The notes beneath the pieces were generated by a model. It did no database searches and was not told the DNA's origin. It saw nothing but the letters and a program-made list of their open reading frames with translations. The position numbers were made by a program, and so were the translations under genes. From Gammaproteobacteria bacterium (GTDB lineage: Bacteria > Pseudomonadota > Gammaproteobacteria > Eutrophobiales > Eutrophobiaceae), in assembly GCA_028819495.1 (NCBI GenBank), contig JAPPLI010000189.1, forward strand, positions 1 to 37,078: a DNA stretch of 37,078 bases, in the 5' to 3' direction. Shown here piece after piece: positions 42 through 22,825 of the stretch (positions are counted from its first letter, which is position 1; the number at the start of each line of letters is the position of its first letter).

Positions 42-935
42 TTAAACTTGGGTTAATACGGCAGTGGCAACAAATAGTGTGAGATTAACCTTGGCAATCA
101 ATATAGTGCCGATTATTGATCCAACCAGTGCCACGGCAAATACCTGTGCGATCAGCTCACCACTTTGTAACGTTGTTGCATCCAGGTAAGTTTCTGCATA
201 ATTGGGCAACCATACGACGATGATGTACTTGCTGACGACCACCAGGAATAAAAATATCCCCGCCAGTACGACACTTGAATTCAATTCTGTTTTGACTTTC
301 TCCTCTTCACCATGCGGTGGTTTTGATTCAAACTCGAAGGAAGAAATAACGACCAGGTATAAAACAACAAGTAACGCCAGTGCGGCTACGACATAGCTGA
401 ACCCCCATGCCATACCCGTAGCTAAAATATACGCCGCAGTAAAAGGAAATATCACTCCACCAATATTAAATGCGACATCCTGCGATAACATTGCTACCTG
501 CTGGTGTTTATGTTTCCATATCCTGCTGATGATGGTGCCGGCAATGCATATGGCGATTCCGCTGAGCAGCCCGATTACACCCAGTATTACCGGTAATAAC
601 GCGTAGCTGGTATTGAACACTGCAAATGTGGCAGCGAGCAAAATAACGCCGGTATAAATCAGCAACATGGTTCTGATGCTTACATAGTCCAGAATAAAAA
701 ACGTCACTATGGATCCAACCAAATAACAACCTGTCAACCATGAAAACTGTTTCGTAACAGATGTCAGTTCGATGCCGAACTGCTGGGATATGGGGCCGAC
801 CAATAACCCTATTACCGCGAAAAAACCGGCGGTTACTAAATTTGCAAGTAAGCTTATTGAGGTAAGACGAAGATCATTTATGTCAGCCGTGAATTTTTTT
901 AAATGACCTTTAGTTTGAGAGAAACAGGAATACAA
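42..935 (-). CDS. MFS transporter, TsgA-like, C-terminally shortened
   Basis: This is a hydrophobic protein of 297 residues with roughly eight to nine membrane segments. Its order and motifs resemble TsgA/FucP-type major facilitator permeases, for example the stretch GVIGLLSGIAICIAGT and the QDVAFNIGGVIFPFTAAY segment in the N-terminal half. Such permeases are normally near 390 residues, so about 100 residues (the last membrane helices) are missing. The stop lies 41 bases from the window edge and no other frame clearly carries the missing part. The first possible start in this frame is a TTG at 935, and no convincing ribosome site precedes it, so the start is uncertain. It is the last gene of the minus-strand run beginning at the TonB receptor, 86 bases after the amidohydrolase. 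The substrate is unknown; context suggests a purine-like compound. It may be a pseudogene. Confidence 0.6.
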   Translation of the reverse strand: MYSCFSQTKGHLKKFTADINDLRLTSISLLANLVTAGFFAVIGLLVGPISQQFGIELTSVTKQFSWLTGCYLVGSIVTFFILDYVSIRTMLLIYTGVILLAATFAVFNTSYALLPVILGVIGLLSGIAICIAGTIISRIWKHKHQQVAMLSQDVAFNIGGVIFPFTAAYILATGMAWGFSYVVAALALLVVLYLVVISSFEFESKPPHGEEEKVKTELNSSVVLAGIFLFLVVVSKYIIVVWLPNYAETYLDATTLQSGELIAQVFAVALVGSIIGTILIAKVNLTLFVATAVLTQV

Positions 936-1021
936 AATATACCATGCCCCATTAAATGTCGGTGATGAAGTGCATGTGCCAACCTGTTTGTAGTTGGAGT
1001 GAGGTTCGATATTAAATCAGC

Positions 1022-2368
1022 TTAATAACCGATTAGTCTTGCAACACTGGCCTTATAGTCGCGTATTACCCTGGACTCATCGACTGTTAATACCTCCCGG
1101 TTCTCAAGAACCACTTTTCCGTCAATGATAACGGTATGAATATTATTTGATGTACCGAATTCAACAATAAGGCGATGAATACTATTTCGATAAGGCACGA
1201 CATTCGTTTGATTCATGTCAAAAAGGACAATATCCGCTTTCTTTCCCACCTCCAGAGAACCGATTTCCTTCTCAAGTCCTAACGCCCTCGCACCGTTAAT
1301 TGTTGCCATTTCCAGAACTTTATAGGCATCCAGAATACTCCAGCCATCCCCCTCCATATTATGGGCCAGCAATGTAAAATTCATATTTACAATTACGTCC
1401 CATATGTCATCCGTGCCTAAACACACATTGATTCCCTCTTCCAGGAACCTGAAGATGGGCGCAGTGCCGGCGCCATGCATATTGCTCCAGGCGCAATGGG
1501 CCACATGCACACCAGTCTGCTTCATAATGCGCATGTCTTCTTCATCCACCCAACAACAATGGGCTGCAAGAACATGGTTTTCCAGGATATCGAAGTTACG
1601 GTCATAGTACTGAAAGTGAGATGCTCCTTTCTCTTGCTTCCAATAGTCCTCGTCAAAACTCGTTTCCGACATATGTATCGCCAACCCGGTGCTTGTCTTC
1701 TTACAGATCTCGGACACATTCTCTACGAGTTTATCTGAACTGGATGGCGGATAACTCAGGCCCGGCCAAACGGATAACCTGTCGTGACCAGTCCAGGTAT
1801 TGATGAGTTCCACCGTACTCTGTGCAGCTTCGTCTGCATCTTCCAGGTAAGTGACCTCGGCCCCCGGTAGCCCAACGGCTACCCAGTTGACATCAGATAT
1901 AGTCCTGGAATATATACCCCGCATGCCTAATTCATCGTATGCCTGAAGAAAACCTGGAGCGCATTGATCCGCGTTCATCTCGACAGAATCGATATTGGTA
2001 GTGCAGCCGGATTTAACCAGGTTAATCGCTCCATTCATGGAGGCATAGTAGTATTCCTCTTCCCCCATATCTTCGAGGCTTTGGTACAGCCTGTTACAAA
2101 ATTCATAAAGCCCGCCTTCAAATGTAGGGTTGTGTTTACCGATATTCGAATATTGGTGGTTGTGAGCATTGACAAAACCGGGCAAAATGACTTTATCCGA
2201 TGCATCAATACACTTGTTGGCTGAAAACTTTTGCTTTATCTCTTCGGTTTTACCAATGTCAACAATCCGGTTACCCGTAATGACAATTGCCCCATCATCG
2301 ATGACAGCCTGATTCTGATCCATGGTATAGACAATGCCGTGCTCAATAGTCAGATCAGCTTTTTCCAT
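1022..2368 (-). CDS. Amidohydrolase, SAH/guanine/chlorohydrolase-type deaminase
   Basis: This 448-residue cytoplasmic metal-dependent hydrolase belongs to the amidohydrolase superfamily branch that holds S-adenosylhomocysteine deaminases, 8-oxoguanine deaminase and TrzN/AtzA chlorohydrolases. Metal and catalytic residues can be placed: H69-N-H71 after the first beta strand, H232 and E235 in HMSE, H270 in AAHCCW, and D320 in LGTDD. The family removes an amino or other leaving group from an aromatic nitrogen ring by hydrolysis. I start it at the ATG at 2368 because AGGAGGG sits at ideal spacing before it; a GTG two codons upstream is less likely. It follows the MFS gene by only about 20 bases, so the two are probably co-transcribed. 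With a molybdenum hydroxylase and a second deaminase in the cluster, deamination of an amino-purine intermediate is a reasonable inference, but the true substrate cannot be read from sequence. Confidence 0.85.
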   Translation of the reverse strand: MEKADLTIEHGIVYTMDQNQAVIDDGAIVITGNRIVDIGKTEEIKQKFSANKCIDASDKVILPGFVNAHNHQYSNIGKHNPTFEGGLYEFCNRLYQSLEDMGEEEYYYASMNGAINLVKSGCTTNIDSVEMNADQCAPGFLQAYDELGMRGIYSRTISDVNWVAVGLPGAEVTYLEDADEAAQSTVELINTWTGHDRLSVWPGLSYPPSSSDKLVENVSEICKKTSTGLAIHMSETSFDEDYWKQEKGASHFQYYDRNFDILENHVLAAHCCWVDEEDMRIMKQTGVHVAHCAWSNMHGAGTAPIFRFLEEGINVCLGTDDIWDVIVNMNFTLLAHNMEGDGWSILDAYKVLEMATINGARALGLEKEIGSLEVGKKADIVLFDMNQTNVVPYRNSIHRLIVEFGTSNNIHTVIIDGKVVLENREVLTVDESRVIRDYKASVARLIGY

Positions 2369-2388
2369 TACCACCCTCCTGTCTACTG

Positions 2389-3564
2389 TTATGTGAGAAT
2401 CTCTTGAAATTCTAATTTAGCCATGCGTTGCGCCACAACCAGCAATAATAGCAACGCAAAAAATACACCGAATAATGTGGTCCACCCGAGTAAATTAATA
2501 CCTCCGCGTTCGATCAAGAGCCCTGCAAACACGGGTCCCAGTATGCTGCCAAGTAACGTCAAACCGGCAGCAATGGAAGCCCAGCGTCCCCATTGATCCA
2601 GACTGGCGGCCATCCCGAGTGAAAAAGATATATTAAAGAAATATGCAATGTTGTTTACAGTCATACAAACTATAAACACAACAGGATTTGGTAAAATGCA
2701 CATGAGCCACCAGCTGCCGCCCATGGCCAAGAAACCAACCGTCAGGGGAACGACTCTGCCTAAACGAACACCAATCCAGGCAGATACCATTGCTCCGATG
2801 ACACCGAGAAAGGCAGCAATTCCAATAACAGTTCCTGTAAATTCGATATTCAACCCACTGATTTCCCCAACGTAAACTCCGAACACCCAGCATGCATTCT
2901 GCCAGATCAAGGCAAAAACAAAGCCGAACACAAACAAGCATCCTAATCCAAACGATGGCAATGCTTGCCTGGATCGAGCGTCAACGTTTGTATGAATATC
3001 AACAGGAAGCAGAAACAATAACGGCAGTATTAATACGTAAAACATCGTCATCAAGCCAAAAATACCCTGCACTCCAAACGCCTTCAAACTGTACCCTGCC
3101 GATATGATTGCAATAGATACCACGATTGCAACCAGTACATTGACTACTCCGTACATCTTTTCCGGTTCACGATATCTGGCCACTGCCGCCGCGCCACTTA
3201 CGATTGCAAGCCCGGTGCCTGCTCCGGCAAGTAAACGTAAGAACATCAGATATTCATAGTGACTGGTAAGGATGCTGCAAATATTGGTAGCGATGGCTAT
3301 GGCACAGCCCAAGAGGGCAAAATGTCTCTTTGACAGTCTGTGGATAACAGGGCCAAAGACAAGAGATATCAGACCGACACCTGCAAATTCAACAGAGACA
3401 AGATAAGCTGCTCTGCTCTCCGACAATCCCAAATTGGCGATGAGCGCTTCCACTATCATAGGTGCGGCGCCATTGACAAGGTACCCCACGACCCACGCCG
3501 CGAAGCAACCCCAGATCAGACACCATTCGGGGCGGTTATAACCTAACCAGCCTGTACTTTTCAT
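2389..3564 (-). CDS. MFS transporter
   Basis: This 391-residue protein has about twelve hydrophobic segments across its full length and the usual length of a major facilitator permease. The N-terminal half carries a characteristic first-loop region (residues about 65-85, ending HRLSKRHFALLG) and the gene ends in a short charged tail. It sits in the inner membrane. It lies between a Rieske oxygenase (about 100 bases upstream) and the amidohydrolase (about 20 bases downstream) on the same strand, so it is probably the inner-membrane importer that partners the TonB receptor of this operon. No strong ribosome site precedes the ATG at 3564. The substrate is inferred from context only. It differs from the shortened TsgA-like permease at the left edge, so the cluster had two distinct permeases. 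Confidence 0.85.
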   Translation of the reverse strand: MKSTGWLGYNRPEWCLIWGCFAAWVVGYLVNGAAPMIVEALIANLGLSESRAAYLVSVEFAGVGLISLVFGPVIHRLSKRHFALLGCAIAIATNICSILTSHYEYLMFLRLLAGAGTGLAIVSGAAAVARYREPEKMYGVVNVLVAIVVSIAIISAGYSLKAFGVQGIFGLMTMFYVLILPLLFLLPVDIHTNVDARSRQALPSFGLGCLFVFGFVFALIWQNACWVFGVYVGEISGLNIEFTGTVIGIAAFLGVIGAMVSAWIGVRLGRVVPLTVGFLAMGGSWWLMCILPNPVVFIVCMTVNNIAYFFNISFSLGMAASLDQWGRWASIAAGLTLLGSILGPVFAGLLIERGGINLLGWTTLFGVFFALLLLLVVAQRMAKLEFQEILT

Positions 3565-3664
3565 AGTAGACTTTAATCTTATCCGGTATTACTGAATGTT
3601 AACCGTTTCGCGCTGACGAGTACCTGGCCGGCCGATTATTATAATTGTGTAACATCAATAATGG

Positions 3665-4675
3665 TTACAACGCTCCGTAAGTCACCCCGATCTTCTTGAG
3701 GTAGCGGCGGTAGGCTGAAGTTAATACATCCGACTTCAATTGAATCTCCGACTTTGTATCCAACGGCAGGCACTTCGGTTCCTGCGACTCCACTACCGGT
3801 TTATCCTGCATCAGAATTTCAATATCAAATTCAATAATCTGTGCCAGGCGTTGTTTGTCCCTGGTGCCGTGCCACGCCAGCGAGAAGTAAGCGCAACAAC
3901 TGGTTTCAGTAACCGGCCTGACTGCAAGCATCAGTGACTTTCGCTGTGTTGGCACATCCGAACCTGACTCGTTTCTGGCTGTATAAACGGCAGACGGGGA
4001 CAAAATACCGTAGGTAAATTCAGACCTTATCATTTTGTCGATATTACCTTGATCAGGGAGATAAGTAACAATGTTTGGGGTGAAAATGCCCTGTTCCGTA
4101 AGATCAACATGGTATTCCGGAACCTCCGCACAGGAAGAATTTCCTAATAAACCATCATGGACAAACGGGATATGTGAAACATCGAGAAAGTTTTCACAGA
4201 GGCGCAATGCTGAGGAGTGTATCTCGAATGGACCGACTGCCAACACACCGTAGTTTTCATCTTCGAATTCCGGTGGCGCGGGTAATTCTGCCGGATCATT
4301 ACTCAGGTTTATCCAGACTAATCCGGCGTGCTCGGCAGCTTTGTAAGTCTCCAACGCCTTGGCCCTGTCCGGGATATGTCCGTTCGGATCGGCCGGAATT
4401 AGTTCACAAACCCCCTGCGCGCCGTATTCCCAACCGTGGTAGGGACAACGGAGCCGCTCATTGCATATTTTCCCCAGGGATAATTTAGCGCCGCGATGGG
4501 CACACCGGTCTTGCCATGCCACGAGTTTTTCTGACGAACGCCAGACTACGATTGCTTTGTCAAATACTGTTGTCCCGAGCGGTTTAGCGCTGTCTAATTG
4601 ATCAACCGGGCATACGGGGAACCAATGGCGTGCCAGCACCTGGTCTTCGATATTATTTGCAGTTATCATTCGCAT
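3665..4675 (-). CDS. Rieske non-heme iron oxygenase, alpha subunit (RO1)
   Basis: This 336-residue protein is a VanA/caffeine-demethylase-type oxygenase. Near the N terminus is a Rieske [2Fe-2S] site with C58, H60, C77 and H80 (CAHR and CPYHGW). The catalytic domain has the motif ENFLDVSHIPFVH with bridging D165 and iron ligands H168 and H173. The C-terminal segment QDKPVVESQEP should supply the third, aspartate ligand. Enzymes of this family commonly remove methyl groups from N or O by hydroxylation, releasing formaldehyde, and need a separate reductase; the only reductase seen in this cluster is at 8635-9588. It lies 60 bases after the TonB receptor, on the same strand. The start could be this ATG or the ATG two codons later. 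It resembles RO4 (20424-21467) in the region after the Rieske site more than RO2 and RO3. The substrate is not determined. Confidence 0.9.
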   Translation of the reverse strand: MRMITANNIEDQVLARHWFPVCPVDQLDSAKPLGTTVFDKAIVVWRSSEKLVAWQDRCAHRGAKLSLGKICNERLRCPYHGWEYGAQGVCELIPADPNGHIPDRAKALETYKAAEHAGLVWINLSNDPAELPAPPEFEDENYGVLAVGPFEIHSSALRLCENFLDVSHIPFVHDGLLGNSSCAEVPEYHVDLTEQGIFTPNIVTYLPDQGNIDKMIRSEFTYGILSPSAVYTARNESGSDVPTQRKSLMLAVRPVTETSCCAYFSLAWHGTRDKQRLAQIIEFDIEILMQDKPVVESQEPKCLPLDTKSEIQLKSDVLTSAYRRYLKKIGVTYGAL

Positions 4676-4735
4676 TCACGCAGATGCGAGGCGCGCTTGA
4701 AACCTACCCGCCATACCCGGGCGCAAATTGTTGGA

Positions 4736-6994
4736 CTAAAATCTATAACTGACCGTCCCACCGACCTGGCGTGGAGCCGCGGGGTATTGAATAAAGCCCC
4801 CATTCACGCCACTGAAGTCAAACCCCCCGTTCAGGTACACTTCATCCGTGAGGTTCTTCACCCATAGTCGCACATCCCATTTTTCGTCCGAGGTGGTGTA
4901 ACCAATATTTCCACCTACTAACCAATAGGCATCCTGGGCAATTGTCGGGTTATTGTCATTGTTGAAGACATGATTGTCGATAAAGACAAAATCACCCTGG
5001 ATTGTCACGCTACCAAGCTCATTTTTCAGCGGCCAGCTATATGCAATAATACTGTTAAAATTGATTTCAGGGGTATACGCAGTGGTATTGCCGGACTGGT
5101 CATGGCCTGACGCGGGATTTAGAAACTCATCAAATTCCGAGTCGGTCCAGGCAAATCCAGCTTCCACTATGAAACGGTCGGTGGGTGTCCATGTAGCTGC
5201 CATATCAATACCTGTAATGGTCAAGGCACCGGCATTGGAAAGAACGGTTACATTATTGCCTCCGGTACCCGTTATCTCCGAAAACACCTGTTTATCTTTG
5301 TAATCATAATAATAACCCGATAGCTCCATTGATAAAGTATCGTTGAAAAGTTGTGCCTTTACTCCTGCTTCGTAACTTGTCAGGAATTCCGGATCCGTGA
5401 TCACGAACGCATCCGGATTACTCGCCCCACTGTTCGGATCGCCACCTTTAAAACCATGGGCGAAGGTAAACCACAGGTTGGTATCGTCATTCAGCCCATA
5501 CATCAGGGAGAAACGCCCGCTTGGCTCATTGGAAGAACTTTCCAGCGTTCCTGTTTCAATAGGAAAAACCGTGTTCGCGTTGGAGTAGGCCTTTGAATTG
5601 AACTGCGCATTCAGGGGGGTGAATGTCGCGATATTCGCCGTGGTGGTGCGTTTGTCATAGGTCCAGCGAAAGCCGCCAATCATCTCTAATCTATCGGTCA
5701 ACTTGTAGGTCACTTCACCAAATCCTGCCGCTGTTTTGGTCTCCGTATCCTGTTGTAATCGTGTTGGTAGAATGGGGAACCCCAAAATGGCCGTTAAAAA
5801 GCCAAACAGGTCCGGCAAGTCAGCGGCATGATAGATGTCCAGGTTATCTTCATAGTAATAAAATCCCGCGACCCAGCTAAGCCGATCGCTGTACTCCGAG
5901 CTCAGTCGCAGCTCCTGGCTCCAACCATCATACTCATCATCATAACTCCCATGTAACGCTTGTATCGGCGCACCATCGGTATCGTCAAAGGCCTGATGAT
6001 CACTCTCATTGTAGGCCGTGACAGAGGTAATATGGTAATCCCCCCAGTCATAATCAATCATGAAGGTGGCGCCAAACGATTCGACATCTTCAAAACCATC
6101 CACTTCCGGTGAACTGACATGCGGATTTGAATTGGGCACAAATCCGGATGTATCCGCACAGGTGGTACCCAACCTGCCCGGTTTAATGCATCCCGCGCCC
6201 AGTGTGCCCAAATGCTGGGTGCCGGCGATGGAGCCGTCCTTTTCAGCGTAACTAATCGTAGCACCCAGTCTTAATACCTCACTGGGCTCATACACGAAAT
6301 TGCCCCGCAGCGCGTAGCTCGTCCCGTCAACGTAATCATCCGCCTCCAGCCCACCACCTGATGCTTCAAAATATCCATCTGTTGTATTCACTTTACCCGC
6401 AAGACGCATACCAAATTCATTACTCACGGGGATACTGACTGCCCCTTCAACATCCAGTTCATCAAACTCGGCATACCCTGCATTTATAAATCCATTTAAT
6501 GCCTCGCCGGGCTTGGCTTTTACCGGTACGTAGTTTATCAACCCACCGGTGGTATTCCTGCCCCACAAGGTACCCTGTGGTCCCTTTAATACCTCCACCC
6601 GTTCCAGATCCAGTAAAGCTGCAGCCAGTGTATAGTTGGCGCCTTGATACACGCCATCCGCATAGCTGGCAATGGGGTTGATGGAGGCGGTAAGAAAGTC
6701 GGAGTTCCCTACACCGCGCAGGAATATATGCGGTTTGCTTTCCTTATTCGTTCCGGCGATTATCATTCCCGGGATATGTTTGGAAAAATCGAACAAATCC
6801 CGTGATTGTAGAGACCGCAATTTGTTGCCACTGAGGGCTGTAACTGAAAGCGGAACATCCTGCAAATTCTGTTCACGTTTTTGCGCGGTAACGACGACCT
6901 CTTCGATGAGTTGGGCAAGTGGCGATTGAGAAAAGCACAGGAAAACGATTAAGGTGAATATACGAGAAATTTTTTGATTGTTGCCAAATATCAT
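4736..6994 (-). CDS. TonB-dependent outer membrane receptor
   Basis: This 752-residue protein has a signal peptide (hydrophobic core FTLIVFLCFSQSPLAQ), then a TonB box and plug start reading EEVVVTAQKREQNLQDVPLS. A plug region follows, with the motifs LFDFSKHIPGM, FLRGVGNSDF and VLKGPQGTLWGRNTTGG. The beta-barrel ends in a terminal aromatic residue (TVSYRF), as outer-membrane barrels do. These receptors import scarce or bulky compounds using energy passed by TonB. I choose the ATG at 6994 because GGGGGG precedes it by seven bases; the more upstream ATG at 7021 lies inside a perfect palindrome and has no such site. It heads the leftward gene run with RO1, MFS and amidohydrolase, so it probably imports the compound that the cluster degrades. 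It shares an upstream 38-bp element with the GcvT-like gene. Confidence 0.93.
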   Translation of the reverse strand: MIFGNNQKISRIFTLIVFLCFSQSPLAQLIEEVVVTAQKREQNLQDVPLSVTALSGNKLRSLQSRDLFDFSKHIPGMIIAGTNKESKPHIFLRGVGNSDFLTASINPIASYADGVYQGANYTLAAALLDLERVEVLKGPQGTLWGRNTTGGLINYVPVKAKPGEALNGFINAGYAEFDELDVEGAVSIPVSNEFGMRLAGKVNTTDGYFEASGGGLEADDYVDGTSYALRGNFVYEPSEVLRLGATISYAEKDGSIAGTQHLGTLGAGCIKPGRLGTTCADTSGFVPNSNPHVSSPEVDGFEDVESFGATFMIDYDWGDYHITSVTAYNESDHQAFDDTDGAPIQALHGSYDDEYDGWSQELRLSSEYSDRLSWVAGFYYYEDNLDIYHAADLPDLFGFLTAILGFPILPTRLQQDTETKTAAGFGEVTYKLTDRLEMIGGFRWTYDKRTTTANIATFTPLNAQFNSKAYSNANTVFPIETGTLESSSNEPSGRFSLMYGLNDDTNLWFTFAHGFKGGDPNSGASNPDAFVITDPEFLTSYEAGVKAQLFNDTLSMELSGYYYDYKDKQVFSEITGTGGNNVTVLSNAGALTITGIDMAATWTPTDRFIVEAGFAWTDSEFDEFLNPASGHDQSGNTTAYTPEINFNSIIAYSWPLKNELGSVTIQGDFVFIDNHVFNNDNNPTIAQDAYWLVGGNIGYTTSDEKWDVRLWVKNLTDEVYLNGGFDFSGVNGGFIQYPAAPRQVGGTVSYRF

Positions 6995-7017
6995 ATTTTT
7001 GCCCCCCATGTATAAAT

Positions 7018-7033
7018 TCAATACTAGTATTGA
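7018..7033. promoter_or_regulatory. 16-bp perfect palindrome before the TonB receptor
   Basis: The sequence TCAATACTAGTATTGA reads the same on both strands. It lies 24 bases upstream of the chosen receptor start, next to the ribosome site, a place suited to a repressor operator or a transcript hairpin. No second copy was found in the window, so its role is inferred from position only. Confidence 0.5.
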
Positions 7034-7086
7034 TACGCAAAATATTCAACGTGGTTGCCTTGGATTTGGGCCATCCCGGATAAAGA

Positions 7087-7375: not shown

Positions 7376-7394
7376 CTGCATTCCTGGTACGTGA

Positions 7395-7477: not shown

Positions 7478-7502
7478 GCAATAAAAATGTGAATCAATAT
7501 GA
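7478..7502 (+). repeat. Leader repeat at the RO2 start codon, copy 1
   Basis: The bases from GCAATAAAAATGTG through the start codon are repeated at 18135-18158, in front of the isopenicillin-N-synthase-like gene, with one base missing there. In both places the run ends at the presumed ATG. The shared leader may be a translation signal or a relic of duplication of a 5' region. Confidence 0.6.
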
Positions 7503-14270: not shown

Positions 14271-15635
14271 TCATGAAATGATGTGGGGCCACAAACCTCG
14301 AATTAACAGCCCACTAACCAGTCTTTTACGGTAACTGGCCGACCCCCGGATATCGTCGATGGGAGAACATTCTTCTGCCAAGATACTTGCTGCTTCTAAT
14401 ATACGTTCTTCGTTTAATGGTTCAGCCATGAGATAGGCTTCAGTTTTGGGAGCACGCACGATAGTGGGGGCTACAGCACCAAGGGCTATTTTTACATCAG
14501 ATAATTGCTTATTTACCAAGCTGCCGCAAAAGGAAACAGATACGATGGCTATCGTCTGTGATTGACGAGGTCCAAATTTCTCGAAAAAACTAACCTCCTT
14601 ACCGCCTTGGGGAACAAGACGCTTAGGAATGACGATCTCGGTAATAACTTCGTCGTTATGTAAATTAGTTTTCCCCGGGCCGGCAGCAATTTGCTCAACA
14701 GGCACACTTCGTTCTGTTGTTGCAGAACGTATTATTGCTGCTGCGCCCAGCACGATCAAAACGGGAACACCATCTGCTGATGGCGAAGCGTTAGCCAGAT
14801 TACCTCCCAAGGTACCAAGATTTTGGATTTGCACGCCCCCAACTTCCCGTGATGCACTGCTCAGCACGTTCGCCCATTCCTGCACAGCACTGGACTCAAT
14901 AATGTCAGAATAAGTGGTAGCTGCGCCTATTATGATTGAATCGTTTTCTTCACGTATAAAATCAAGATCTGCAACTGCCGAAAGATCAATATATTTATTG
15001 TCCTTAAGAGAATGTTCATAGTGGACACTGATGTCGGTACTGCCACATACGAGCTTATAGCCCGTATCCTGCCTGAGGAGTTGCAGTACTTCACCCAGTG
15101 AGTTTGGACGCACAAAATTATCATCGCTGCAAGTAGTGGTATTACTGATAATTTTTTCTTTTTTTGGTAACTGACTGCCTAATCGATGACTGGCGGCTAT
15201 TCCTGCATCGACTATTTTTGTATAGCCGGTGCAACGACACAGATTACCGGCCACCGCAGCGCGAATGTCATCCCGGCTTGGTGTGGATTTTTTGCTTAAT
15301 AAGTATTGAGTCGCCAGGATAAAACCAGGCGTACAAAATCCGCATTGTACTGCACCTGTATCGGCAAAGGCGGTAACAACATGTTTACCAATAGCATCTT
15401 CAGGCATCGCTTCTATCGTAACAACGTCCAGCCCATTGACCTGGCCTGCAAGCGTCATGCAAGAAGTAATCGGACGGCCATTCAGTAAAACAGTACACGC
15501 CCCGCATTCCCCCTCTCCACAACCGTATTTACAACCCCGCAAATCAAGTTGCTCACGTAATACGGAAAGAAGCGTAGCGCGTGGTTCTGTATCGATTGAA
15601 CGTTGTTGTCCGTTAAGGGTGAATTCAACTTGCAT
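14271..15635 (-). CDS. Xanthine dehydrogenase family FeS-FAD subunit (fused)
   Basis: This protein of about 454 residues fuses the iron-sulphur and FAD parts of a molybdenum hydroxylase. The plant-type [2Fe-2S] site has C39, C44, C47 and C59; the helical [2Fe-2S] site has C97, C100, C132 and C134 (CGFC and CRC). The FAD domain begins near residue 175, with LVCGSTDI and the NLGTLGGNLANASPSAD motif. This arrangement matches XdhA of two-subunit bacterial xanthine dehydrogenases. I take the ATG at 15635, seven codons inside the longest frame, because the protein then begins just before the FeS fold. It overlaps the large-subunit gene by 11 bases, showing tight coupling. Electrons from ring hydroxylation would pass through these centres to NAD. 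It is likely cytoplasmic, since no signal peptide is present. Confidence 0.9.
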   Translation of the reverse strand: MQVEFTLNGQQRSIDTEPRATLLSVLREQLDLRGCKYGCGEGECGACTVLLNGRPITSCMTLAGQVNGLDVVTIEAMPEDAIGKHVVTAFADTGAVQCGFCTPGFILATQYLLSKKSTPSRDDIRAAVAGNLCRCTGYTKIVDAGIAASHRLGSQLPKKEKIISNTTTCSDDNFVRPNSLGEVLQLLRQDTGYKLVCGSTDISVHYEHSLKDNKYIDLSAVADLDFIREENDSIIIGAATTYSDIIESSAVQEWANVLSSASREVGGVQIQNLGTLGGNLANASPSADGVPVLIVLGAAAIIRSATTERSVPVEQIAAGPGKTNLHNDEVITEIVIPKRLVPQGGKEVSFFEKFGPRQSQTIAIVSVSFCGSLVNKQLSDVKIALGAVAPTIVRAPKTEAYLMAEPLNEERILEAASILAEECSPIDDIRGSASYRKRLVSGLLIRGLWPHIIS

Positions 15636-17883
15636 AAGAAAGTTTCTCAAGGACACGTTCAGGAGTTAGCGGGATTTGGGTATAACGCACACCGACCGCG
15701 TCGTACACCGCGTTAAGGATTGCAGATGGCGTTGGGCACATTACGATCTCAGCAATTCCCTTAACACCAAAGGGTGTATTCGGATCTGGATTTTCCACGG
15801 CTGTCGTAATTATCTCATCGGGAATGTCGATAATATAAGGCGCAACATAAGTAGAGAGGGCAGGATTTAATACTCGTCCTTCATCCATTACACAATCTTC
15901 CATTAACGTATAACCAATGCTCTGTGCTATACCTCCCTCGGATTGACCTTCAAATCCCTGCCGATTAACTACCTTGCCTGCATCAACTGCGCTGTGAAAC
16001 TTCAGGACGTTGACCTTGCCGGTCAATACATCTACTTCAACCAGCGCTGCCTGAGCGCTGTAGGTAAACACCCAGGCATTAAAGTCGTCGGTATTATCCT
16101 CAGGGTTTTCCTGGTATATACGAACAATGCCATTACCTGTCAGAACTCCCAATTCCCGGATTGCCATTGTGTTACCACTGGCAATGTTTTTACCGGCAGT
16201 ACCGACCAATTCCACTTCTTCATATTCACAACCGAAAATGCTGGAAAATTTCTCAAGAATCTTATGGCGCAAATCTTGAGCCGCCTTTACTACAGCCGCG
16301 CTGGTAATGTACATGGTTCGTACGGCGTCACAAGCGCCTGTATCCGGCCCGGCTGAATCACCGATGTGAACTTCAACCTGGTCAATTGCGCAATTCATTT
16401 CATTAGCGACGATTTGTGCGAAAGCCGTGGCGTTACCTTGCCCCATATCGACTCCCCCCACTAATAATCGATAATGACCTTTTTTCGTAGATTCAAGGCG
16501 AACTTCAGCTGAGTCCGGTATTCCATGCCCATACCCGACACACATCCACGCTGCTGAAACTCCTACGCCGCGTTTTGTCCAGCGGTCCTGCGGTGGTGAT
16601 AATGCTTTTAGTTCATCTCGCCTCGAATATATGGGGCCAACTTCAACTTCATCCAGCACCTGATTGAGACTGCTGCTTTTTGCGTTGTAGACGAAACCTG
16701 AAGGTGCTTGCTGTCCTGGTTGAAGCTCATTTATTCGACGCAACTCAAGGGGATCGAATTCCAACTTACGCGCCATTTCATCCATTTGGGATTCGATACC
16801 TATTGAACCTTGTAAACCACCGAAACCACGAAATGCTCCTGAAACACAATTATTGGTATACACACAGTAGGCATCGAGCTTTACGTTTGGAATGTAATAC
16901 GGTCCAAGACATGTTTCGGTCGCTACCTTTAGTACAGCATAACCCCACGAAGCATGAGCACCGGTATCGGCAATCATTCTAATCTCGGCCGCCTGTAATT
17001 TTCCGTTTCGGTCACAGGCAATTTTGTACCGCTTATAAAAGGGATGGCGCTTCGTCGTTGCTATTATGCTCTCTTCACGATCCAACATAATATAGCTGGG
17101 TTGTTTCGTAAGATAAGTCACCAGAGCCAGGTGACATTGCACGGTAAATTCGTCTTTACCACCGAATGAACCACCTACCATTGGAGTTAGAACACGTACG
17201 TCTTGCTCTGAAACAGCCAGGAACTCCGCAATCTGCGCATGATCACGATGAGGATATTGCCCACCATGGCGAATAGTCAGGAGTCCGTTCTCATCGTAGA
17301 ATGCGGCGCCTGCCTCGGTTTCCATGGGGATATGTTCCTGCCGTCCTGTAACATAGTCATTTTCAAAGATGAAGTCTGCATCGGCAAATCCATCTGCCAC
17401 ATCCCCTTGAATGTTGTGTATCTCGCACAAAATATTACCATCCGGATGGATCTTGTATGCATTCGGCTCCATCGCCTCATACACATCCGCTATTACCGGA
17501 AGTAAATCGTATTCAACTTCAACGAGATCACGAGCGCGTATCGCTGCTTCGTCCGTTTCCGCAGCTACGATAGCAACGGCATCGCCGACGCAACGAACAC
17601 GGTCCTCACACAAAACAGGGCCGTCGATGTTGAAAGGATGTACTCCATTTTTCCCTGGGATATCTGCTGCCGTAAATATCCTCACAACTCCAGGCACTTG
17701 TTCGGCGGTGCTTGTATTAATTGATAAGATTCGTGCGTGTGGATGTTCGGCGCGCAGGATGCGAAGCCTCAACATACCTTCAATCACGTAATCAGAAGGG
17801 TAAACATGGCTGCCAATGGCCTTGGTTACACCATCGATACGTCTGGCCGGCTCACCGATTTGAGGAACTGTGGGCTTAACCAT
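15625..17883 (-). CDS. Xanthine dehydrogenase family molybdenum subunit
   Basis: This 752-residue subunit binds the molybdopterin cofactor. GGSFGGK (237-243) matches the cofactor loop, AFRGFGG has the arginine expected in purine-type hydroxylases, and GVKGIAE near the C terminus supplies the catalytic glutamate. The residue directly after GGSFGGK is aspartate, where well-studied xanthine dehydrogenases have a substrate-binding glutamate, so a modified purine or other ring may be the substrate. With the downstream FeS-FAD subunit it forms a hydroxylase that adds oxygen from water to a ring carbon. The 56-bp element lies 111 bases upstream. It starts the leftward operon with the FeS-FAD subunit and the LysR gene. 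Confidence is high for the family and low for the exact substrate. Confidence 0.9.
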   Translation of the reverse strand: MVKPTVPQIGEPARRIDGVTKAIGSHVYPSDYVIEGMLRLRILRAEHPHARILSINTSTAEQVPGVVRIFTAADIPGKNGVHPFNIDGPVLCEDRVRCVGDAVAIVAAETDEAAIRARDLVEVEYDLLPVIADVYEAMEPNAYKIHPDGNILCEIHNIQGDVADGFADADFIFENDYVTGRQEHIPMETEAGAAFYDENGLLTIRHGGQYPHRDHAQIAEFLAVSEQDVRVLTPMVGGSFGGKDEFTVQCHLALVTYLTKQPSYIMLDREESIIATTKRHPFYKRYKIACDRNGKLQAAEIRMIADTGAHASWGYAVLKVATETCLGPYYIPNVKLDAYCVYTNNCVSGAFRGFGGLQGSIGIESQMDEMARKLEFDPLELRRINELQPGQQAPSGFVYNAKSSSLNQVLDEVEVGPIYSRRDELKALSPPQDRWTKRGVGVSAAWMCVGYGHGIPDSAEVRLESTKKGHYRLLVGGVDMGQGNATAFAQIVANEMNCAIDQVEVHIGDSAGPDTGACDAVRTMYITSAAVVKAAQDLRHKILEKFSSIFGCEYEEVELVGTAGKNIASGNTMAIRELGVLTGNGIVRIYQENPEDNTDDFNAWVFTYSAQAALVEVDVLTGKVNVLKFHSAVDAGKVVNRQGFEGQSEGGIAQSIGYTLMEDCVMDEGRVLNPALSTYVAPYIIDIPDEIITTAVENPDPNTPFGVKGIAEIVMCPTPSAILNAVYDAVGVRYTQIPLTPERVLEKLSYAS

Positions 17884-17994: not shown

Positions 17995-18050
17995 TGTTTT
18001 GGTTTGACAAGAGTAGAAACAAATTCCACACCCCTGCTTCAATATTTGCA
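17995..18050 (-). promoter_or_regulatory. 56-bp shared element, copy 2 (molybdenum hydroxylase operon)
   Basis: Read on the minus strand, this block matches 7395-7450 with four mismatches in 56. Its initial dyad reads TGCAAATATTGAA here, with one change from the symmetrical form. It is oriented towards the molybdenum hydroxylase gene but is also close to the divergent isopenicillin-N-synthase-like gene, so it could affect both. Confidence 0.7.
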
Positions 18051-18134
18051 CCACTTAACGGTAATTTTAGAAGCACAGGGTGCACCGAGTGAGACCATGA
18101 TTTTACATAGTCCAGGTAGTTGAAGGTGACCTAT

Positions 18135-18158
18135 GCAATAAAAATGTGATCAATATGA
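18135..18158 (+). repeat. Leader repeat at start of isopenicillin-N-synthase-like gene, copy 2
   Basis: GCAATAAAAATGTG followed by ATCAATATGA repeats the leader of RO2 at 7478-7502, with one base fewer. Because the ATG of RO2 aligns with the ATG at 18155 here, that ATG is the better start for this gene than the GTG at 18146. Confidence 0.6.
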
Positions 18159-19219
18159 GCAAATCCTCAAGCAAATCAAAGAATATTGGTATTCCAATAG
18201 CTGACTTGGCGTTATTGAATTCAAGCGACACGGATCTCGAGTCATCAGGAAAGTTTTTAGAAATTTGGGATTATGCCTTTAGAACTTTCGGCTTTATATG
18301 TCTGATTAATCACGGATTAGAAGAGAATTACAGACTATTACATGCAGAAATCCAGCGTTTCTTCCAACTTCCACTTGGGGAGAAATTGAAATTTCGAATC
18401 GCAGCAGATTATGGGCATGGAGGCTATATCCCACAGGGCCAGGAAAATGTATCACGCACATTTTTGGAAGACGAGAAAGCCAGATCGCCTTACGCCGTCG
18501 AAAGCCTTGCGTCTTCAAAGTCGAATTATGATTCCTTCCCATGTATAGAGAACGGTTACCACAATGACGATTTGAAAAACCTGTCGCTGGAATTGGAAGT
18601 TGGACTGGATTATCTAAGCATAAAAGTGATGGAGATCATGGCTAGGTGCCTGGAGCTGCCAAATGATTACTTTCTGGACTTTTATAAAGATGGCAGGGCC
18701 GTTAATAACATACGCTTCGCGCATTATCTGCGGGTGGAGAAAGGCCAGGAGGGAAAACAGCAAAGATATGGTGAGCATACCGACTATACTGGATTCACCT
18801 TTTTGTGGCGAAGCAGCGATAATGGCTTACAGTGCTTCAACACCAGCGGTGACTTCAACAGTGGCGATATTCATGCCGACCTTGGCAGGAATCAATGGAT
18901 AAATATTCTGACTCTTAAAGAACATCCGGATGCATTGATCGTGAATGCAGGTGATCTGATTCAAAGGTGGACCAACGATTACTGGATAAGTAATATCCAT
19001 CGTGTACTGGGAAATGGGAGGAATGAAGAGGCAGATCAGGAGAATGTGTCAGGGCCGATTTCTATTGTCTTTTTCACCGGTCCCAAGGGGGATACAAAAA
19101 TCAGGGTATTATCACAATCAGAAAAAGTGTCCTCCAAAGGCCCGATTAATGACAAATACAGGGAAGAAGTAACCGCAGAAGAGCATTTGTGGCTTAAAAT
19201 AAACGCATCGAATAAATGA
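18155..19219 (+). CDS. Isopenicillin-N-synthase-like Fe(II) oxygenase
   Basis: This 354-residue protein belongs to the 2-oxoglutarate/Fe(II) oxygenase superfamily of the isopenicillin N synthase type. An N-terminal DIOX_N-like region (IPIADLALLN, then FGFICLINHGL) precedes the jelly-roll core. Iron ligands are visible in EHTDYTGFTFLW (His and Asp) and SNIHRVLG (distal His). The motif that normally reads R-x-S-x-x-F-F and binds the co-substrate carboxylate reads PISIVFF here, so the arginine is replaced by proline. Relatives oxidise side chains or methyl groups, for example thymine 7-hydroxylase. The gene is divergent from the molybdenum hydroxylase operon and convergent with RO3, and shares its leader with RO2. 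An oxidation of a methyl or ring carbon on the same substrate is inferred. Confidence 0.85.
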   Translation: MSKSSSKSKNIGIPIADLALLNSSDTDLESSGKFLEIWDYAFRTFGFICLINHGLEENYRLLHAEIQRFFQLPLGEKLKFRIAADYGHGGYIPQGQENVSRTFLEDEKARSPYAVESLASSKSNYDSFPCIENGYHNDDLKNLSLELEVGLDYLSIKVMEIMARCLELPNDYFLDFYKDGRAVNNIRFAHYLRVEKGQEGKQQRYGEHTDYTGFTFLWRSSDNGLQCFNTSGDFNSGDIHADLGRNQWINILTLKEHPDALIVNAGDLIQRWTNDYWISNIHRVLGNGRNEEADQENVSGPISIVFFTGPKGDTKIRVLSQSEKVSSKGPINDKYREEVTAEEHLWLKINASNK

Positions 19220-19270
19220 ACTCTGCGAGTTGGATGTCGATGGCTTCTTAATGAATAATTTGCCTGACTA

Positions 19271-20332
19271 CTAGGCACACTTTTCATTACTGGTAAGATT
19301 TTTTATCAGCGCATTATTATCTACGGCAATTTCTATTTCACGTAACCACCTCCTGTATTGTATTGAGACCATATCCGTAGGTACTGAAATTTCATTTATA
19401 TCATAAGGTATTTGAGGCGGGTCCTGGGCTTCAATAACCACAATATCTTCATCCAGCACACGTTCCTGGAATGCCAGATGCGGGTAGTCCGGTTCATCTT
19501 TATCGTGGTCACGGCAGGTAAACCAGAAACTACGGCAGTGTCCTTCATCTATTGGCGATGCTGACATCCATAATATGGCGCGATTACCTTTGCCCGCCTT
19601 ACTGATGAGTTCGAATTCCAGATTAACCGTAAACGGCATGGTAATCTGATAGTCAGTCTTTCCCATCAGTGACACATCCGGGATGGGCATCTCATCTGAT
19701 TTCGGATCAAATTGGAATATCAACTGGCCGTCTATACGTTCCATTGAGGGAGGTGTCACATCTGTGATGTTCGGATCAAACAAGGTATTGGGATGAACAT
19801 AGGGAAAATGGGCCAGATCGACAAAATTCTCCAACCGCCTTGCTGCTGATGTAGGCCAGGTATAGGGTTTTCCGATGACAGCTTTAAATTTTTCATCATC
19901 ATATCCTGGACAGGGAGGGATTTGTGTGTCTGCTTCCGATTCAAGCCTGACCCAAACCAAGTCATATTTCACATGTGTATCATATTTTTTTATTTTTGCC
20001 CGACCCGGAATTTTCAGATCACGACAGGCTGGAATATCAACACATACTCCATTGATATCGTATGCCCATCCATGATAACGGCAGCGTAATCTCCCATCTT
20101 CTACGACACCCCTCGACAATGCCGTCGACCGATGCGCGCACCTGTCTGTAAATGCAGCAATTTTTTCATTTAATTTTGCTACAACCAGATTTTCACCGAG
20201 TAACCTTACCCTCAGGGGGCCATTACCTGAAGAATTCGCGGAATAAAACTCCTCCAGGGTACAGACTGGATGCCAGAAGTGGCGCCACGTTTCTTCTTTG
20301 ATAAAACGACTTTGCTGTTCTGATTTATCCAT
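19271..20332 (-). CDS. Rieske non-heme iron oxygenase, alpha subunit (RO3)
   Basis: This 353-residue oxygenase has Rieske ligands C65, H67, C84 and H87 (CAHRS and CRYHGW). The iron motif is ENFVDLAHFPYVH, with D172, H175 and H180, and the acidic segment DEDIVVIEAQDP follows near the C terminus. It shares the N-terminal block TWxxFWHPVCTL and the region PTSAARRLENF with RO2, so the two are paralogues, probably with different regioselectivity on related substrates. No reductase is next to it, so it likely depends on the one at 8635-9588. It lies 91 bases downstream of RO4 on the same strand and converges with the isopenicillin-N-synthase-like gene. Caffeine demethylases of Pseudomonas likewise use sibling oxygenases for N1 and N3 methyls; whether that applies here is inference. 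Confidence 0.9.
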   Translation of the reverse strand: MDKSEQQSRFIKEETWRHFWHPVCTLEEFYSANSSGNGPLRVRLLGENLVVAKLNEKIAAFTDRCAHRSTALSRGVVEDGRLRCRYHGWAYDINGVCVDIPACRDLKIPGRAKIKKYDTHVKYDLVWVRLESEADTQIPPCPGYDDEKFKAVIGKPYTWPTSAARRLENFVDLAHFPYVHPNTLFDPNITDVTPPSMERIDGQLIFQFDPKSDEMPIPDVSLMGKTDYQITMPFTVNLEFELISKAGKGNRAILWMSASPIDEGHCRSFWFTCRDHDKDEPDYPHLAFQERVLDEDIVVIEAQDPPQIPYDINEISVPTDMVSIQYRRWLREIEIAVDNNALIKNLTSNEKCA

Positions 20333-20423
20333 GATTATCCGAGCATGATTGTTATTGTCAAAAAGATTTATTGAAACTGTACAGACAGTATTTTCATGTT
20401 ACTCCTTCTTCGGAATCGTTATA

Positions 20424-21467: not shown

Positions 21468-21515
21468 TCTCTGATTCCTGCAGCGGGGAGTCCCATGAAC
21501 GTTGATTATGGCACA

Positions 21516-22130
21516 CTATTTGTCACTTTGATTATTCAATCTGTCAGCAGGCAAAAAATCCTCCAGCTCTTCAAAGATTTCTTTTACACCCTGTTTACGA
21601 TGGTAGATTTCACTCAAGGATAAACCACTCAATTCGTAGGGCAATACCAGCCATTTATTGGTTTCATATAAATAATAATCCGGCACTCGCCCGGTACGGT
21701 TATTGGCAGGCTTATACCAGATTACGGCTATACGGGCGTCCACAGGCATGTTCCTGCGGGTCTTTTTTGAAAGTTGATCAATCACGGCCTTGATGCTCAG
21801 GCCGGTGCTGTATACATCATCGACGATCAACAACCTGTTGTCCGCTTCCAGGTTTTCCAGCAGGTATTGCAGCCCATGTACATGTATGGCCTCCGTATTC
21901 TCGATCATCTCAGGATAGGTACTCATTCCGGTATAAGAGGTGCGTATGGAGATGTGATCTGATTCCACGCCAAGGTATTCGAGACAATCCTGCACACCGA
22001 TACCCACCGGACTGCCCCCGCGCCACAACCCGACGATAAAATCCGGCCTGAAGTCACTTGCGTAGATTTTTACACCCAGCCGGTAAGAATCCAGCATTTG
22101 ATCTTCTGCATTTATGAATACTTTATCCAA
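21516..22130 (-). CDS. Purine-type phosphoribosyltransferase, paralogue 1
   Basis: This 204-residue type I phosphoribosyltransferase has the PRPP-binding motif LLIVDDVYSTGLS (residues about 100-112) and an early WRGGSPVG loop, both as in hypoxanthine/xanthine-guanine enzymes. It would join a free base to PRPP. The only upstream start available before an in-frame stop is TTG at 22130. Alignment with the neighbour at 22256-22825 supports this start, although the GAGGA ribosome-like site is almost in contact with it. The gene heads the leftward unit with RO4 and RO3, linking base salvage directly to oxygenases. It is divergent from its paralogue, with 125 bases between. The accepted base could be a demethylated purine; that is inference. 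Confidence 0.85.
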   Translation of the reverse strand: MDKVFINAEDQMLDSYRLGVKIYASDFRPDFIVGLWRGGSPVGIGVQDCLEYLGVESDHISIRTSYTGMSTYPEMIENTEAIHVHGLQYLLENLEADNRLLIVDDVYSTGLSIKAVIDQLSKKTRRNMPVDARIAVIWYKPANNRTGRVPDYYLYETNKWLVLPYELSGLSLSEIYHRKQGVKEIFEELEDFLPADRLNNQSDK

Positions 22131-22255
22131 TCCTCAATACCATGATGAGTAAACCATCCCGGGCTCAGGGGTACCCTGATACGGTGAATTCAGACAGGCA
22201 TCCGATTTCCGAAAGGATATAATACTTGACGAAAAATAGTGGAAAATAATTTCCC

Positions 22256-22825
22256 ATGTCAGAAAAGCTCTACCTGTCTACGCAAGGCCAGCTTGAAGAT
22301 TCGTTCAAATTGGGCAGTTTGATTCTGAAAAGCGGGTTCAAACCAAAATTCATTATCGCTATATGGCGAGGCGGTGCGCCGATTGGAATCGCGGTGCAGG
22401 AAATACTCGAATACTGCGGCATCAAAACCGACCATATTGCCATCCGCACGTCATCTTACAGTGATATAAACAAACGCGCCGATCAAGTGCGGGTACATGG
22501 CTTGAACTATCTGGTTAAAAACATAAGTCATACTGATCCGCTACTCATTGTTGATGATGTATTCGATACCGGCCTGACGATTGATGCAGTGATTAAAACA
22601 CTGCGGGACAGGGCGAAACTGAATACTCCTGATGATATTCGTGTCGCCGTACCCTGGTATAAACCCAGCCATAACAGAACTGAGCGTGAGCCTGATTATT
22701 ACCTGCATACCACGGAACGATGGATCAAGTTTCCATTCTCGCTAGAGGGATTGACTATTGACGAGATAAAACAGAACAGGCCTTCGTTATTTGAAATTCT
22801 TGCGCCGGTAATCACATCCCGGTAG
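22256..22825 (+). CDS. Purine-type phosphoribosyltransferase, paralogue 2
   Basis: This 189-residue paralogue of the gene at 21516-22130 has the same layout: an early IWRGGAPIGIAVQEILEYCG loop, then LLIVDDVFDTGLT (about 96-108) as the PRPP site, and a C-terminal WYKPSHNRTEREPDYYLHTT block that the other copy also has in closely related form. The two differ at many positions, so they diverged well before any recent event and probably differ in base preference. The start is ATG at 22256. It ends at the first copy of a 35-bp hairpin repeat that marks the change to GC-rich DNA, so it looks like the last gene of the catabolic cluster. Confidence 0.85.
   Translation: MSEKLYLSTQGQLEDSFKLGSLILKSGFKPKFIIAIWRGGAPIGIAVQEILEYCGIKTDHIAIRTSSYSDINKRADQVRVHGLNYLVKNISHTDPLLIVDDVFDTGLTIDAVIKTLRDRAKLNTPDDIRVAVPWYKPSHNRTEREPDYYLHTTERWIKFPFSLEGLTIDEIKQNRPSLFEILAPVITSR

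What the first reader, a model, noticed from the sequence alone, without database searches (positions are those of the whole stretch)
42..22825. Candidate catabolic system for an N-methylated purine or related heterocycle
The cluster combines four Rieske oxygenases, one reductase, a molybdenum hydroxylase, two unrelated deaminases, a LigM-like methyl transfer protein with MetV and MetF, an isopenicillin-N-synthase-like oxygenase, two purine-type phosphoribosyltransferases, a TonB receptor, permeases and a LysR regulator. Known caffeine pathways use sibling Rieske N-demethylases and a xanthine-type dehydrogenase, but I know of none that adds a tetrahydrofolate methyl branch, a TonB receptor and paired phosphoribosyltransferases. 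The substrate could be a methylated guanine, adenine or xanthine. The families are seen; the pathway is inferred.
Basis: partly seen in the sequence, partly recalled or inferred. Interest (0 to 1): 0.85.

Follow-up and report, generated by a model that had tools for sequence, protein, structure and literature searches.

The report
Methylated purine scavenging gene island
A block of about twenty genes in an unnamed bacterium, different in base composition from its neighbours, encodes members of demethylase, deaminase, uptake and one-carbon enzyme families that together would likely let the cell feed on methylated purine bases (relatives of caffeine and of worn-out RNA letters); the actual food molecule is predicted, not shown.

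Summary
The gene inventory is right: every named family is present at the stated places. Catalytic motifs that I scanned are intact except that the 2OG oxygenase gave no RxS match; the first permease looks cut short at the contig edge. The block (42-22825) has G+C 0.38-0.50; seven of nine genes to its right have 0.55-0.66.

The purine reading gains independent support. The phosphoribosyltransferase pair is 90% and 81% identical to a pair near allantoicase and OHCU decarboxylase in the same genome. Both other close copies of the folate methyltransferase in 96 related genomes lie near an adenosine-deaminase-family gene, one also near OHCU decarboxylase. Of 52 other Rieske places examined in this genome, none has the small deaminase, the phosphoribosyltransferases or the methyltransferase within 8 kb.

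It is also weakened. Rieske C is 84% identical to a gene in a gallate/protocatechuate operon, so NdmA/B likeness does not prove a purine substrate. The molybdenum hydroxylase is nearer to solved nicotinate and hydroxybenzoyl-CoA enzymes than to xanthine oxidase. TonB receptors near Rieske genes are common here (19 of 52).

Best reading: a new variant of Rieske purine demethylation with a folate one-carbon exit, probably for a methylated amino-purine; confidence about 0.45.

The parts
42..935 (-). MFS1, TsgA-like permease, probably truncated at the contig edge
   Evidence: profile positions 4-279 of 395
1022..2374 (-). AMH, amidohydrolase of the atrazine chlorohydrolase / 8-oxoguanine deaminase / guanine deaminase group
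   Evidence: metal motifs
2389..3564 (-). MFS2 permease
3665..4675 (-). Rieske oxygenase A (VanA_C type)
4736..7021 (-). TonB-dependent receptor
7499..8602 (+). Rieske oxygenase B, nearest solved relatives NdmA/NdmB
8635..9588 (+). RED, FAD/NAD/2Fe-2S reductase (VanB type)
9755..10252 (+). CDA, TadA-like small zinc deaminase
10441..11706 (+). GCVT, GcvT/DmdA-fold putative folate-dependent methyltransferase
11789..12265 (+). MetV-type protein (PF12225)
12246..13253 (+). MetF-type methylenetetrahydrofolate reductase
13325..14233 (-). LysR-family regulator
14271..15656 (-). XDHS, fused 2x[2Fe-2S] and FAD subunit of the Mo hydroxylase
15625..17883 (-). XDHL, molybdopterin subunit of the Mo hydroxylase
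18146..19219 (+). 2OG-Fe(II) oxygenase, nearest solved relative thymine dioxygenase; iron-site pattern present, RxS pattern not found
19271..20332 (-). Rieske oxygenase C; 84% identical paralogue in a gallate/protocatechuate operon on contig C156
20424..21467 (-). Rieske oxygenase D
21516..22130 (-). PRT1, phosphoribosyltransferase; 90% identical paralogue near allantoicase and OHCU decarboxylase on C156
22256..22825 (+). PRT2, phosphoribosyltransferase; 81% identical paralogue next to the PRT1 paralogue on C156

Best explanation
This is a low-G+C gene block, likely acquired from elsewhere, that would let the cell take up an N-methylated amino-purine, strip its methyl and amino groups, and feed the bare purine into salvage or ureide breakdown and the methyl groups into folate one-carbon metabolism. 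Predicted route: the TonB receptor and MFS permeases import the compound. Rieske oxygenases A-D, fed by the one reductase, hydroxylate N-methyl groups, which leave as formaldehyde. The GcvT-type enzyme moves one further methyl directly to tetrahydrofolate, and MetV/MetF would oxidise methyl-THF to methylene-THF. The two deaminases would remove exocyclic amino groups. The molybdenum hydroxylase, and perhaps the 2OG oxygenase, would oxidise the ring or a remaining methyl. The phosphoribosyltransferases would salvage the base. Shown: the genes and their families, intact motifs in most of the enzymes scanned, their arrangement, and the kinship of the PRT pair with the genome's ureide locus. Inferred: substrate, order of steps, direction of the folate steps, and joint function.
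For: Families and motifs. Each of three co-directional runs joins a Rieske oxygenase to a purine-type gene: A with the amidohydrolase, B with the small deaminase, D/C with PRT1. Rieske B: NdmA E 2e-72, NdmB E 5e-68. Rieske C: 46% to a plasmid NdmB-length protein (the name is my assignment by length). PRT1/PRT2: 90%/81% to the divergent pair near allantoicase and OHCU decarboxylase on own contig C156. GCVT: 2 of 96 genomes searched (own included) have a match at E <= 1e-60, the own genome and G001. Both loci other than the window lie near an A_deaminase gene: in own C53 its frame ends 53 bases before the GCVT frame, in G001 it is 5.7 kb away. There are only 4 and 3 A_deaminase matches in these genomes. 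In G001 the only OHCU decarboxylase match lies about 1.8 kb from a GCVT-RieskeA-RieskeD run, in a stretch of about 19 kb that also holds ADA, MFS, TBDR and a PRT 58% identical to PRT1. Control: of 55 Rieske places outside the window 52 were covered; within 8 kb, AMH-like at 3 of 52, and CDA, ADA, PRT, GCVT, MetV, MetF, 2OG at 0 of 52 each, while all four window Rieskes have at least one purine-type gene. Distant GCVT relatives in rhizobia have C1 genes (formyl transferase, SHMT), a VanA_C gene and a PnrA-like substrate-binding protein nearby in L010.
Against: Rieske C's nearest relatives are in a gallate/protocatechuate cleavage operon in 4 of 7 genomes of the genus, so NdmA/B-type oxygenases here can serve methoxy-aromatics. 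XDHL matches solved nicotinate dehydrogenase and 4-hydroxybenzoyl-CoA reductase better than xanthine oxidase and reaches no xanthine dehydrogenase cut-off of NCBIfam. The 2OG oxygenase gave no RxS match. No uricase (PF01014) in 7 of 7 genomes, so the route from urate to the ureide genes is not shown. The four window Rieskes in the control are one cluster, not four independent cases, and the 8 kb limit leaves out the GCVT and ADA of C53, which lie more than 10 kb from that contig's Rieske gene. GCVT in C53 and G001 is only about 40% identical to the window's. No other of the 53 held genomes of the order has an XDHL match at E <= 1e-180, so conservation of the whole set could not be tested.
Confidence: 0.45

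Rival explanations
1. The block degrades a different methylated N-heterocycle with an amino group (pyridine, pterin, pyrimidine, triazine or guanidine-alkaloid type). The same chemistry of demethylation, deamination and ring hydroxylation is used, but the PRTs are incidental.
For: XDHL covers solved nicotinate dehydrogenase in both halves (E 7e-92 and 2e-41). The amidohydrolase's nearest solved relative is atrazine chlorohydrolase (E 5e-51). The 2OG oxygenase's nearest is thymine dioxygenase (E 7e-19). Rieske D is nearly as close to SxtT (E 4e-36) as to NdmA (E 3e-41).
Against: The PRT pair's kinship with the ureide locus and the ADA and OHCU neighbours of GCVT homologues point to purines. No ring-opening enzyme for another ring appears among the 30 window frames scanned with Pfam.
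Confidence: 0.22
2. It is an O-demethylation block for methoxylated aromatic acids: VanA/VanB-type Rieskes plus a LigM/Dmt-like folate demethylase with MetF, as in lignin-aromatic degraders.
For: Rieske C paralogue in a LigAB/PobA/LigK/OMA-tautomerase operon. GcvT-superfamily enzymes demethylate vanillate, syringate and dicamba and open the methylenedioxy ring of berberine with THF (passages of PMC5547118, and PMC9404685).
Against: Among the 20 proteins from MFS1 to the ADP-ribosylglycohydrolase there is no extradiol or intradiol dioxygenase and no flavin hydroxylase. Deaminases and PRTs have no role in such a pathway. GCVT fails the LigM and DesA cut-offs.
Confidence: 0.2
3. The block is a patchwork of unrelated catabolic pieces gathered at one site, with no single pathway.
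For: The genome has 59 Rieske matches, and TonB receptors and MFS2-like genes near them are common (19 and 7 of 52). Rieske C and the PRT pair have close copies on one other contig, C156, while the next XDHL-like genes of the genus are 38% identical or less.
Against: Co-directional runs couple the same kinds of gene three times. A similar set recurs in sister genome G001.
Confidence: 0.13

Closest known systems
NdmABCDE caffeine N-demethylation cluster of Pseudomonas putida (review PMC4408171, passages; plasmid examples L134, L135, L136, L138)
   Same: NdmA/B-type Rieske oxygenases with a separate reductase; several demethylases in one cluster; a 2OG oxygenase also occurs in two of the plasmid clusters, though only 24-28% identical to the window's
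   Different: Among the scanned window proteins no Rieske-less NdmC, no NdmD with its own Rieske domain, no GST (NdmE) and no glutathione formaldehyde genes; instead two deaminases, GCVT-MetV-MetF, PRTs and a TonB receptor
Folate-dependent demethylases of the GcvT superfamily (LigM, DesA, DmdA, BrdA, Dmt)
   Same: Same fold as LigM, DmdA and GcvT; a MetF beside it
   Different: Below the cut-offs of the LigM, DesA, DmdA and GcvT models; the aligned residue of E. coli GcvT Asp97 is Ser; neighbours are purine-type genes
Xanthine dehydrogenase family (PucD, XdhABC)
   Same: Domain make-up; best NCBIfam models are xanthine dehydrogenases
   Different: Below their cut-offs; nearest solved structures by sequence are 4-hydroxybenzoyl-CoA reductase and nicotinate dehydrogenase
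MetF paralogue proposed to oxidise methyl-H4F made by a demethylase (MetF2 in a marine bacterium, one passage of PMC12478193)
   Same: MetF beside a demethylating methyltransferase
   Different: There the demethylation is of glycine betaine by MtgBCD; here a GcvT-type enzyme and a separate MetV-type protein

Membership tests
NdmABCDE methylxanthine N-demethylation system | NdmA/B-type Rieske oxygenase | tested here: met
   Rieske B against NdmA E 2e-72; Rieske C 46% to a plasmid NdmB-length protein. Family likeness only, not specificity
NdmABCDE methylxanthine N-demethylation system | Reductase with an extra N-terminal Rieske domain (NdmD) | tested here: not met
   RED is 317 aa with FAD/NAD/Fer2 domains and no Rieske hit and aligns to residues 283-588 of the NdmD-length protein
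NdmABCDE methylxanthine N-demethylation system | Rieske-less NdmC plus GST-like NdmE | tested here: not met
   All four oxygenases keep the Rieske motif; no GST among the 20 proteins scanned. The contig edge hides the left side
NdmABCDE methylxanthine N-demethylation system | frmA/frmB glutathione formaldehyde genes in the cluster | tested here: not met
   No such protein; present in the plasmid clusters
NdmABCDE methylxanthine N-demethylation system | N-demethylation of methylxanthines | not testable with these tools
   Needs enzyme assays
GcvT-superfamily THF-dependent demethylase | GcvT fold with folate-binding domain | tested here: met
GcvT-superfamily THF-dependent demethylase | Methyl transfer to THF | not testable with these tools
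   Needs enzyme assays
LigM vanillate/3-O-methylgallate O-demethylase | Reaches the curated LigM model cut-off | tested here: not met
   81.4 against 580 bits
Glycine cleavage T-protein | Curated cut-off and Asp at E. coli position 97 | tested here: not met
   161.8 against 300 bits; Ser at the aligned position
Xanthine dehydrogenase | Curated xanthine dehydrogenase cut-off | tested here: not met
   PucD 551.5 against 783.65; XdhA 458.9 against 780
Xanthine dehydrogenase | Purine-binding Glu/Arg of bovine xanthine oxidase (Glu802, Arg880; recalled) | tested here: inconclusive
   Bovine sequence and positions recalled, aligned in no call; by eye XDHL has Asp and Val there, and E. coli XdhA lacks Glu and Arg too (alignment of these two)
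Methoxy-aromatic O-demethylation operon | Ring-cleavage dioxygenase in the operon | tested here: not met
   None among the 20 window proteins scanned; present beside the Rieske C paralogue on C156
MetV/MetF pair | PF12225 protein next to MetF | tested here: met
   11789-12265 and 12246-13253 overlap by 20 bases

The most novel reading that the evidence does not exclude
A dedicated pathway by which a bacterium eats methylated adenine- or guanine-type bases, such as those released from degraded tRNA, rRNA or DNA. The methyl groups are harvested twice over: oxidatively by NdmA-like Rieske enzymes and by direct transfer to folate through a GcvT-type purine methyltransferase with MetV/MetF. Deamination and salvage follow. 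This would make methylated nucleobases a one-carbon food.
Probability: 0.25. Interest if true: 0.8.

Novelty: new variant of a known kind. Interest (0 to 1): 0.5.

Why it matters
In the known caffeine N-demethylation cluster methyl groups leave as formaldehyde, with genes for glutathione-linked formaldehyde oxidation at its flanks (PMC4408171, passages). A cluster that also routes methyl to folate and adds deaminases and phosphoribosyltransferases would point to methylated amino-purines, modified bases from nucleic acids, as bacterial carbon, nitrogen and C1 sources. It also names a testable folate-dependent purine demethylase candidate. The Rieske C result is a caution: NdmA/B-type sequences should not be annotated as methylxanthine demethylases without context.

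Tried and rejected
Active-site residues of xanthine oxidase as a purine test: dropped, since E. coli XdhA also lacks them (bovine positions recalled, read by eye). NdmA/NdmB specificity residues (recalled as Asn282/Phe286 and Gln289/Leu293): by eye in the alignment, Rieske C and the gallate-operon copies both show the NdmB pair, so they do not discriminate; a search for two of these residue numbers in PMC11855574 and three in PMC9830774 found none. Wider search for the set: GCVT in 369 genomes of the class, only the own genome at E <= 1e-80; XDHL in the 53 held genomes of the order, only the own at E <= 1e-180. ADP-ribosylglycohydrolase right of the block, sought to find an empty site: no match at E <= 1e-40 in the 6 other genus genomes, so no empty site was shown. 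PF16181 was the wrong accession and nothing rang, controls included. Promoter scan: fewer sites than shuffles, not used. Plasmid searches: XDHL 6 records, amidohydrolase 37 (12 listed), small deaminase 38 (12 listed), 2OG oxygenase 5; listed hits were 25-44% identical and their surroundings were not examined. GCVT gave 176 plasmid records (20 listed, at most 34%), of which one, S. meliloti pSymA, was fetched and has no gene table. No ADA-type gene is in the window itself; that link is through relatives of GCVT.

Literature was read as search listings (4 of 4 papers listed; 18 of 18; 20 of 556; 20 of 175; 20 of 46; 20 of 453; 10 of 76; 5 of 5; 8 of 70). None of the 10 papers listed holds GcvT; the other 66 were not seen, so this is no proof that the combination is unpublished. 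PMC12709175 was read as abstract and outline only; the other papers opened (PMC4408171, PMC9830774, PMC11855574, PMC9404685, PMC5547118, PMC12478193) only as found passages.
Full report
What was checked. The window is one whole contig (C81) of an unnamed 4.97 Mb draft genome. Its right end carries alaS, lysC, a csrA-like frame and tRNA-Ser, an order that I recall as typical of Gammaproteobacteria; csrA is my naming of a 92-residue frame, by recollection. Genes from 42 to 22825 have G+C 0.38-0.50. Of nine genes measured to the right, seven have 0.55-0.66 and a restriction-modification pair has 0.45-0.48. The catalytic motifs that I scanned are intact, except that the 2OG oxygenase shows HxD and a later His but no match to my RxS pattern. 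The first permease seems truncated by the contig edge.

Arrangement. Gaps and strands give four co-directional runs: TBDR-RieskeA-MFS2-AMH-MFS1 (minus), RieskeB-RED-CDA-GCVT-MetV-MetF (plus), XDHL-XDHS-LysR (minus) and PRT1-RieskeD-RieskeC (minus). The 2OG oxygenase and PRT2 stand apart on the plus strand. Thus each of three runs couples a Rieske oxygenase with a deaminase or a PRT. That these are operons is inferred.

The oxygenases. Rieske B finds NdmA (E 2e-72) and NdmB (E 5e-68) first in the PDB. In the plasmid collection it finds seven records at E <= 1e-40. Three of these are a P. putida plasmid, a Paraburkholderia caffeinilytica plasmid from tea-plantation soil and a Komagataeibacter plasmid from kombucha, each with several ring-hydroxylating genes; the other four are Klebsiella plasmids. 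Labelling those genes NdmA, NdmB and so on is my own assignment by length and order. Rieske C is 46% identical to the NdmB-length protein and 45% to the NdmA-length one; A and D are 34% and 31% identical to the latter. In a quick tree of 130 rows (SH-aLRT support) Rieske C groups with its gallate-operon copies (99) and, with support 89, with a group that includes the caffeine-plasmid proteins. B lies in a clade of eight rows (100). A and D are long branches whose place is unsure.

A warning from Rieske C. Its copy on own contig C156 (84% identical) and the copies in G001, G002 and G005 (81-82% to the window; the four are 91-94% identical among themselves) lie in one conserved neighbourhood. 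On C156 NCBIfam names the neighbours as class III extradiol dioxygenase, protocatechuate 4,5-dioxygenase alpha-type subunit (below cut-off), 4-hydroxybenzoate 3-monooxygenase, 4-carboxy-4-hydroxy-2-oxoadipate aldolase and 4-oxalomesaconate tautomerase. In the other three genomes the frames were recognised by their length and first residues only, and the alpha-subunit frame was not listed in G005. That is a gallate/protocatechuate pathway, so this copy is probably a methoxybenzoate O-demethylase. NdmA/B likeness alone therefore does not show a purine substrate.

Evidence for purine. (1) The PRT pair: copies in the own genome are 90% and 81% identical, in the same divergent arrangement, near a third PRT, allantoicase and OHCU decarboxylase. 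In G005 a PRT, allantoicase, a polysaccharide-deacetylase-type protein and OHCU decarboxylase are together as well. (2) GCVT: at E <= 1e-60, 2 of 96 genomes match (the own genome and G001), and the two loci other than the window are own C53 and G001 C63. In C53 an adenosine-deaminase-family frame ends 53 bases before the GCVT frame, and an amidohydrolase that scores best against the same NCBIfam models as AMH follows. In G001 an A_deaminase gene lies 5.7 kb off, and the genome's only OHCU decarboxylase match lies about 1.8 kb from the GCVT-RieskeA-RieskeD run, with one frame between. A_deaminase matches number 4 in the own genome and 3 in G001. (3) Control: of 55 Rieske places outside the window, 52 were covered. 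Within 8 kb, AMH-like genes occur at 3 of 52; CDA, ADA, PRT1, PRT2, GCVT, MetV, MetF, MFS1, LysR and 2OG at 0 of 52; RED-like at 1, XDHL-like at 3, MFS2-like at 7 and TBDR at 19. All four window Rieskes have at least one purine-type gene nearby, but they are one cluster. The limit of 8 kb leaves out the GCVT and ADA genes of C53, which lie more than 10 kb from that contig's Rieske gene. So the deaminase/PRT/methyltransferase company is special, and the TonB receptor is not.

The molybdenum enzyme. XDHL has its best curated model in PucD, but below cut-off (551.5 against 783.65). Nearest solved chains are 4-hydroxybenzoyl-CoA reductase (E 1e-98) and the large subunit of nicotinate dehydrogenase (E 7e-92; its medium subunit matches the rest at E 2e-41), ahead of xanthine oxidase (E 2e-63). 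Homologues at 50-75% identity exist in public data. In the genus the nearest other copies are 38% identical or less, and no other of the 53 held genomes of the order matches at E <= 1e-180.

Gaps. No uricase in 7 genus genomes (the search rang in two of 14 control genomes). The contig edge hides what lies left. No other genome with the whole set could be fetched. The homologue lists give contig lengths only: a contig length of 1,019,393 is listed both for a 70% GCVT homologue (P0002) and for a 53% Rieske B homologue (P0190), which hints at one and the same contig but not at distance.

Verdict. It would work like the Ndm system with a folate exit; it is not a member of the Ndm system as defined, since NdmC, NdmD and NdmE features and the glutathione branch were not found in the window.

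Noticed in passing
28400-30639: CfrBI-type restriction endonuclease and an N6/N4 DNA methylase on the minus strand in a low-G+C patch (0.45-0.48) between high-G+C genes, with an HTH_37 gene nearby (27468-27797): probably a separate restriction-modification insertion.
   Followed up: no
L101:9011-15479 (own contig C156) and L104/L105, L106, L107: A conserved gallate/protocatechuate gene run with an NdmA/B-type Rieske oxygenase as its last gene in four genomes of the genus: a probable methoxybenzoate O-demethylase.
   Followed up: partly
L103:6995-20000 with L104 (G001 contig C63): A related cluster with GCVT, two Rieske-A-like and three Rieske-D-like genes, two MFS, a TonB receptor, adenosine deaminase family and AraC genes, close to OHCU decarboxylase and a PRT. 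A- and D-type Rieskes sit side by side twice, as if they were pairs.
   Followed up: partly
G000, whole genome: 59 Rieske domain matches in one 5 Mb draft genome; a large set by my recollection, not compared with other genomes here.
   Followed up: no
22825-22836: Abrupt composition step (G+C 0.46 to 0.62) between PRT2 and an ADP-ribosylglycohydrolase gene that starts after a gap of 10 bases and has no match at E <= 1e-40 in six sister genomes.
   Followed up: partly
18146-19219: The 2OG oxygenase keeps an HxD and a later His but gave no match to my RxS pattern, so its cosubstrate site may be unusual.
   Followed up: no
L136:5971-12625 (Klebsiella plasmid): A cluster of NdmA/B-like, NdmC-like, NdmD-like, GST and 2OG-oxygenase genes (my labels) between transposase genes, which could be mobile methylxanthine demethylation genes.
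   Followed up: no
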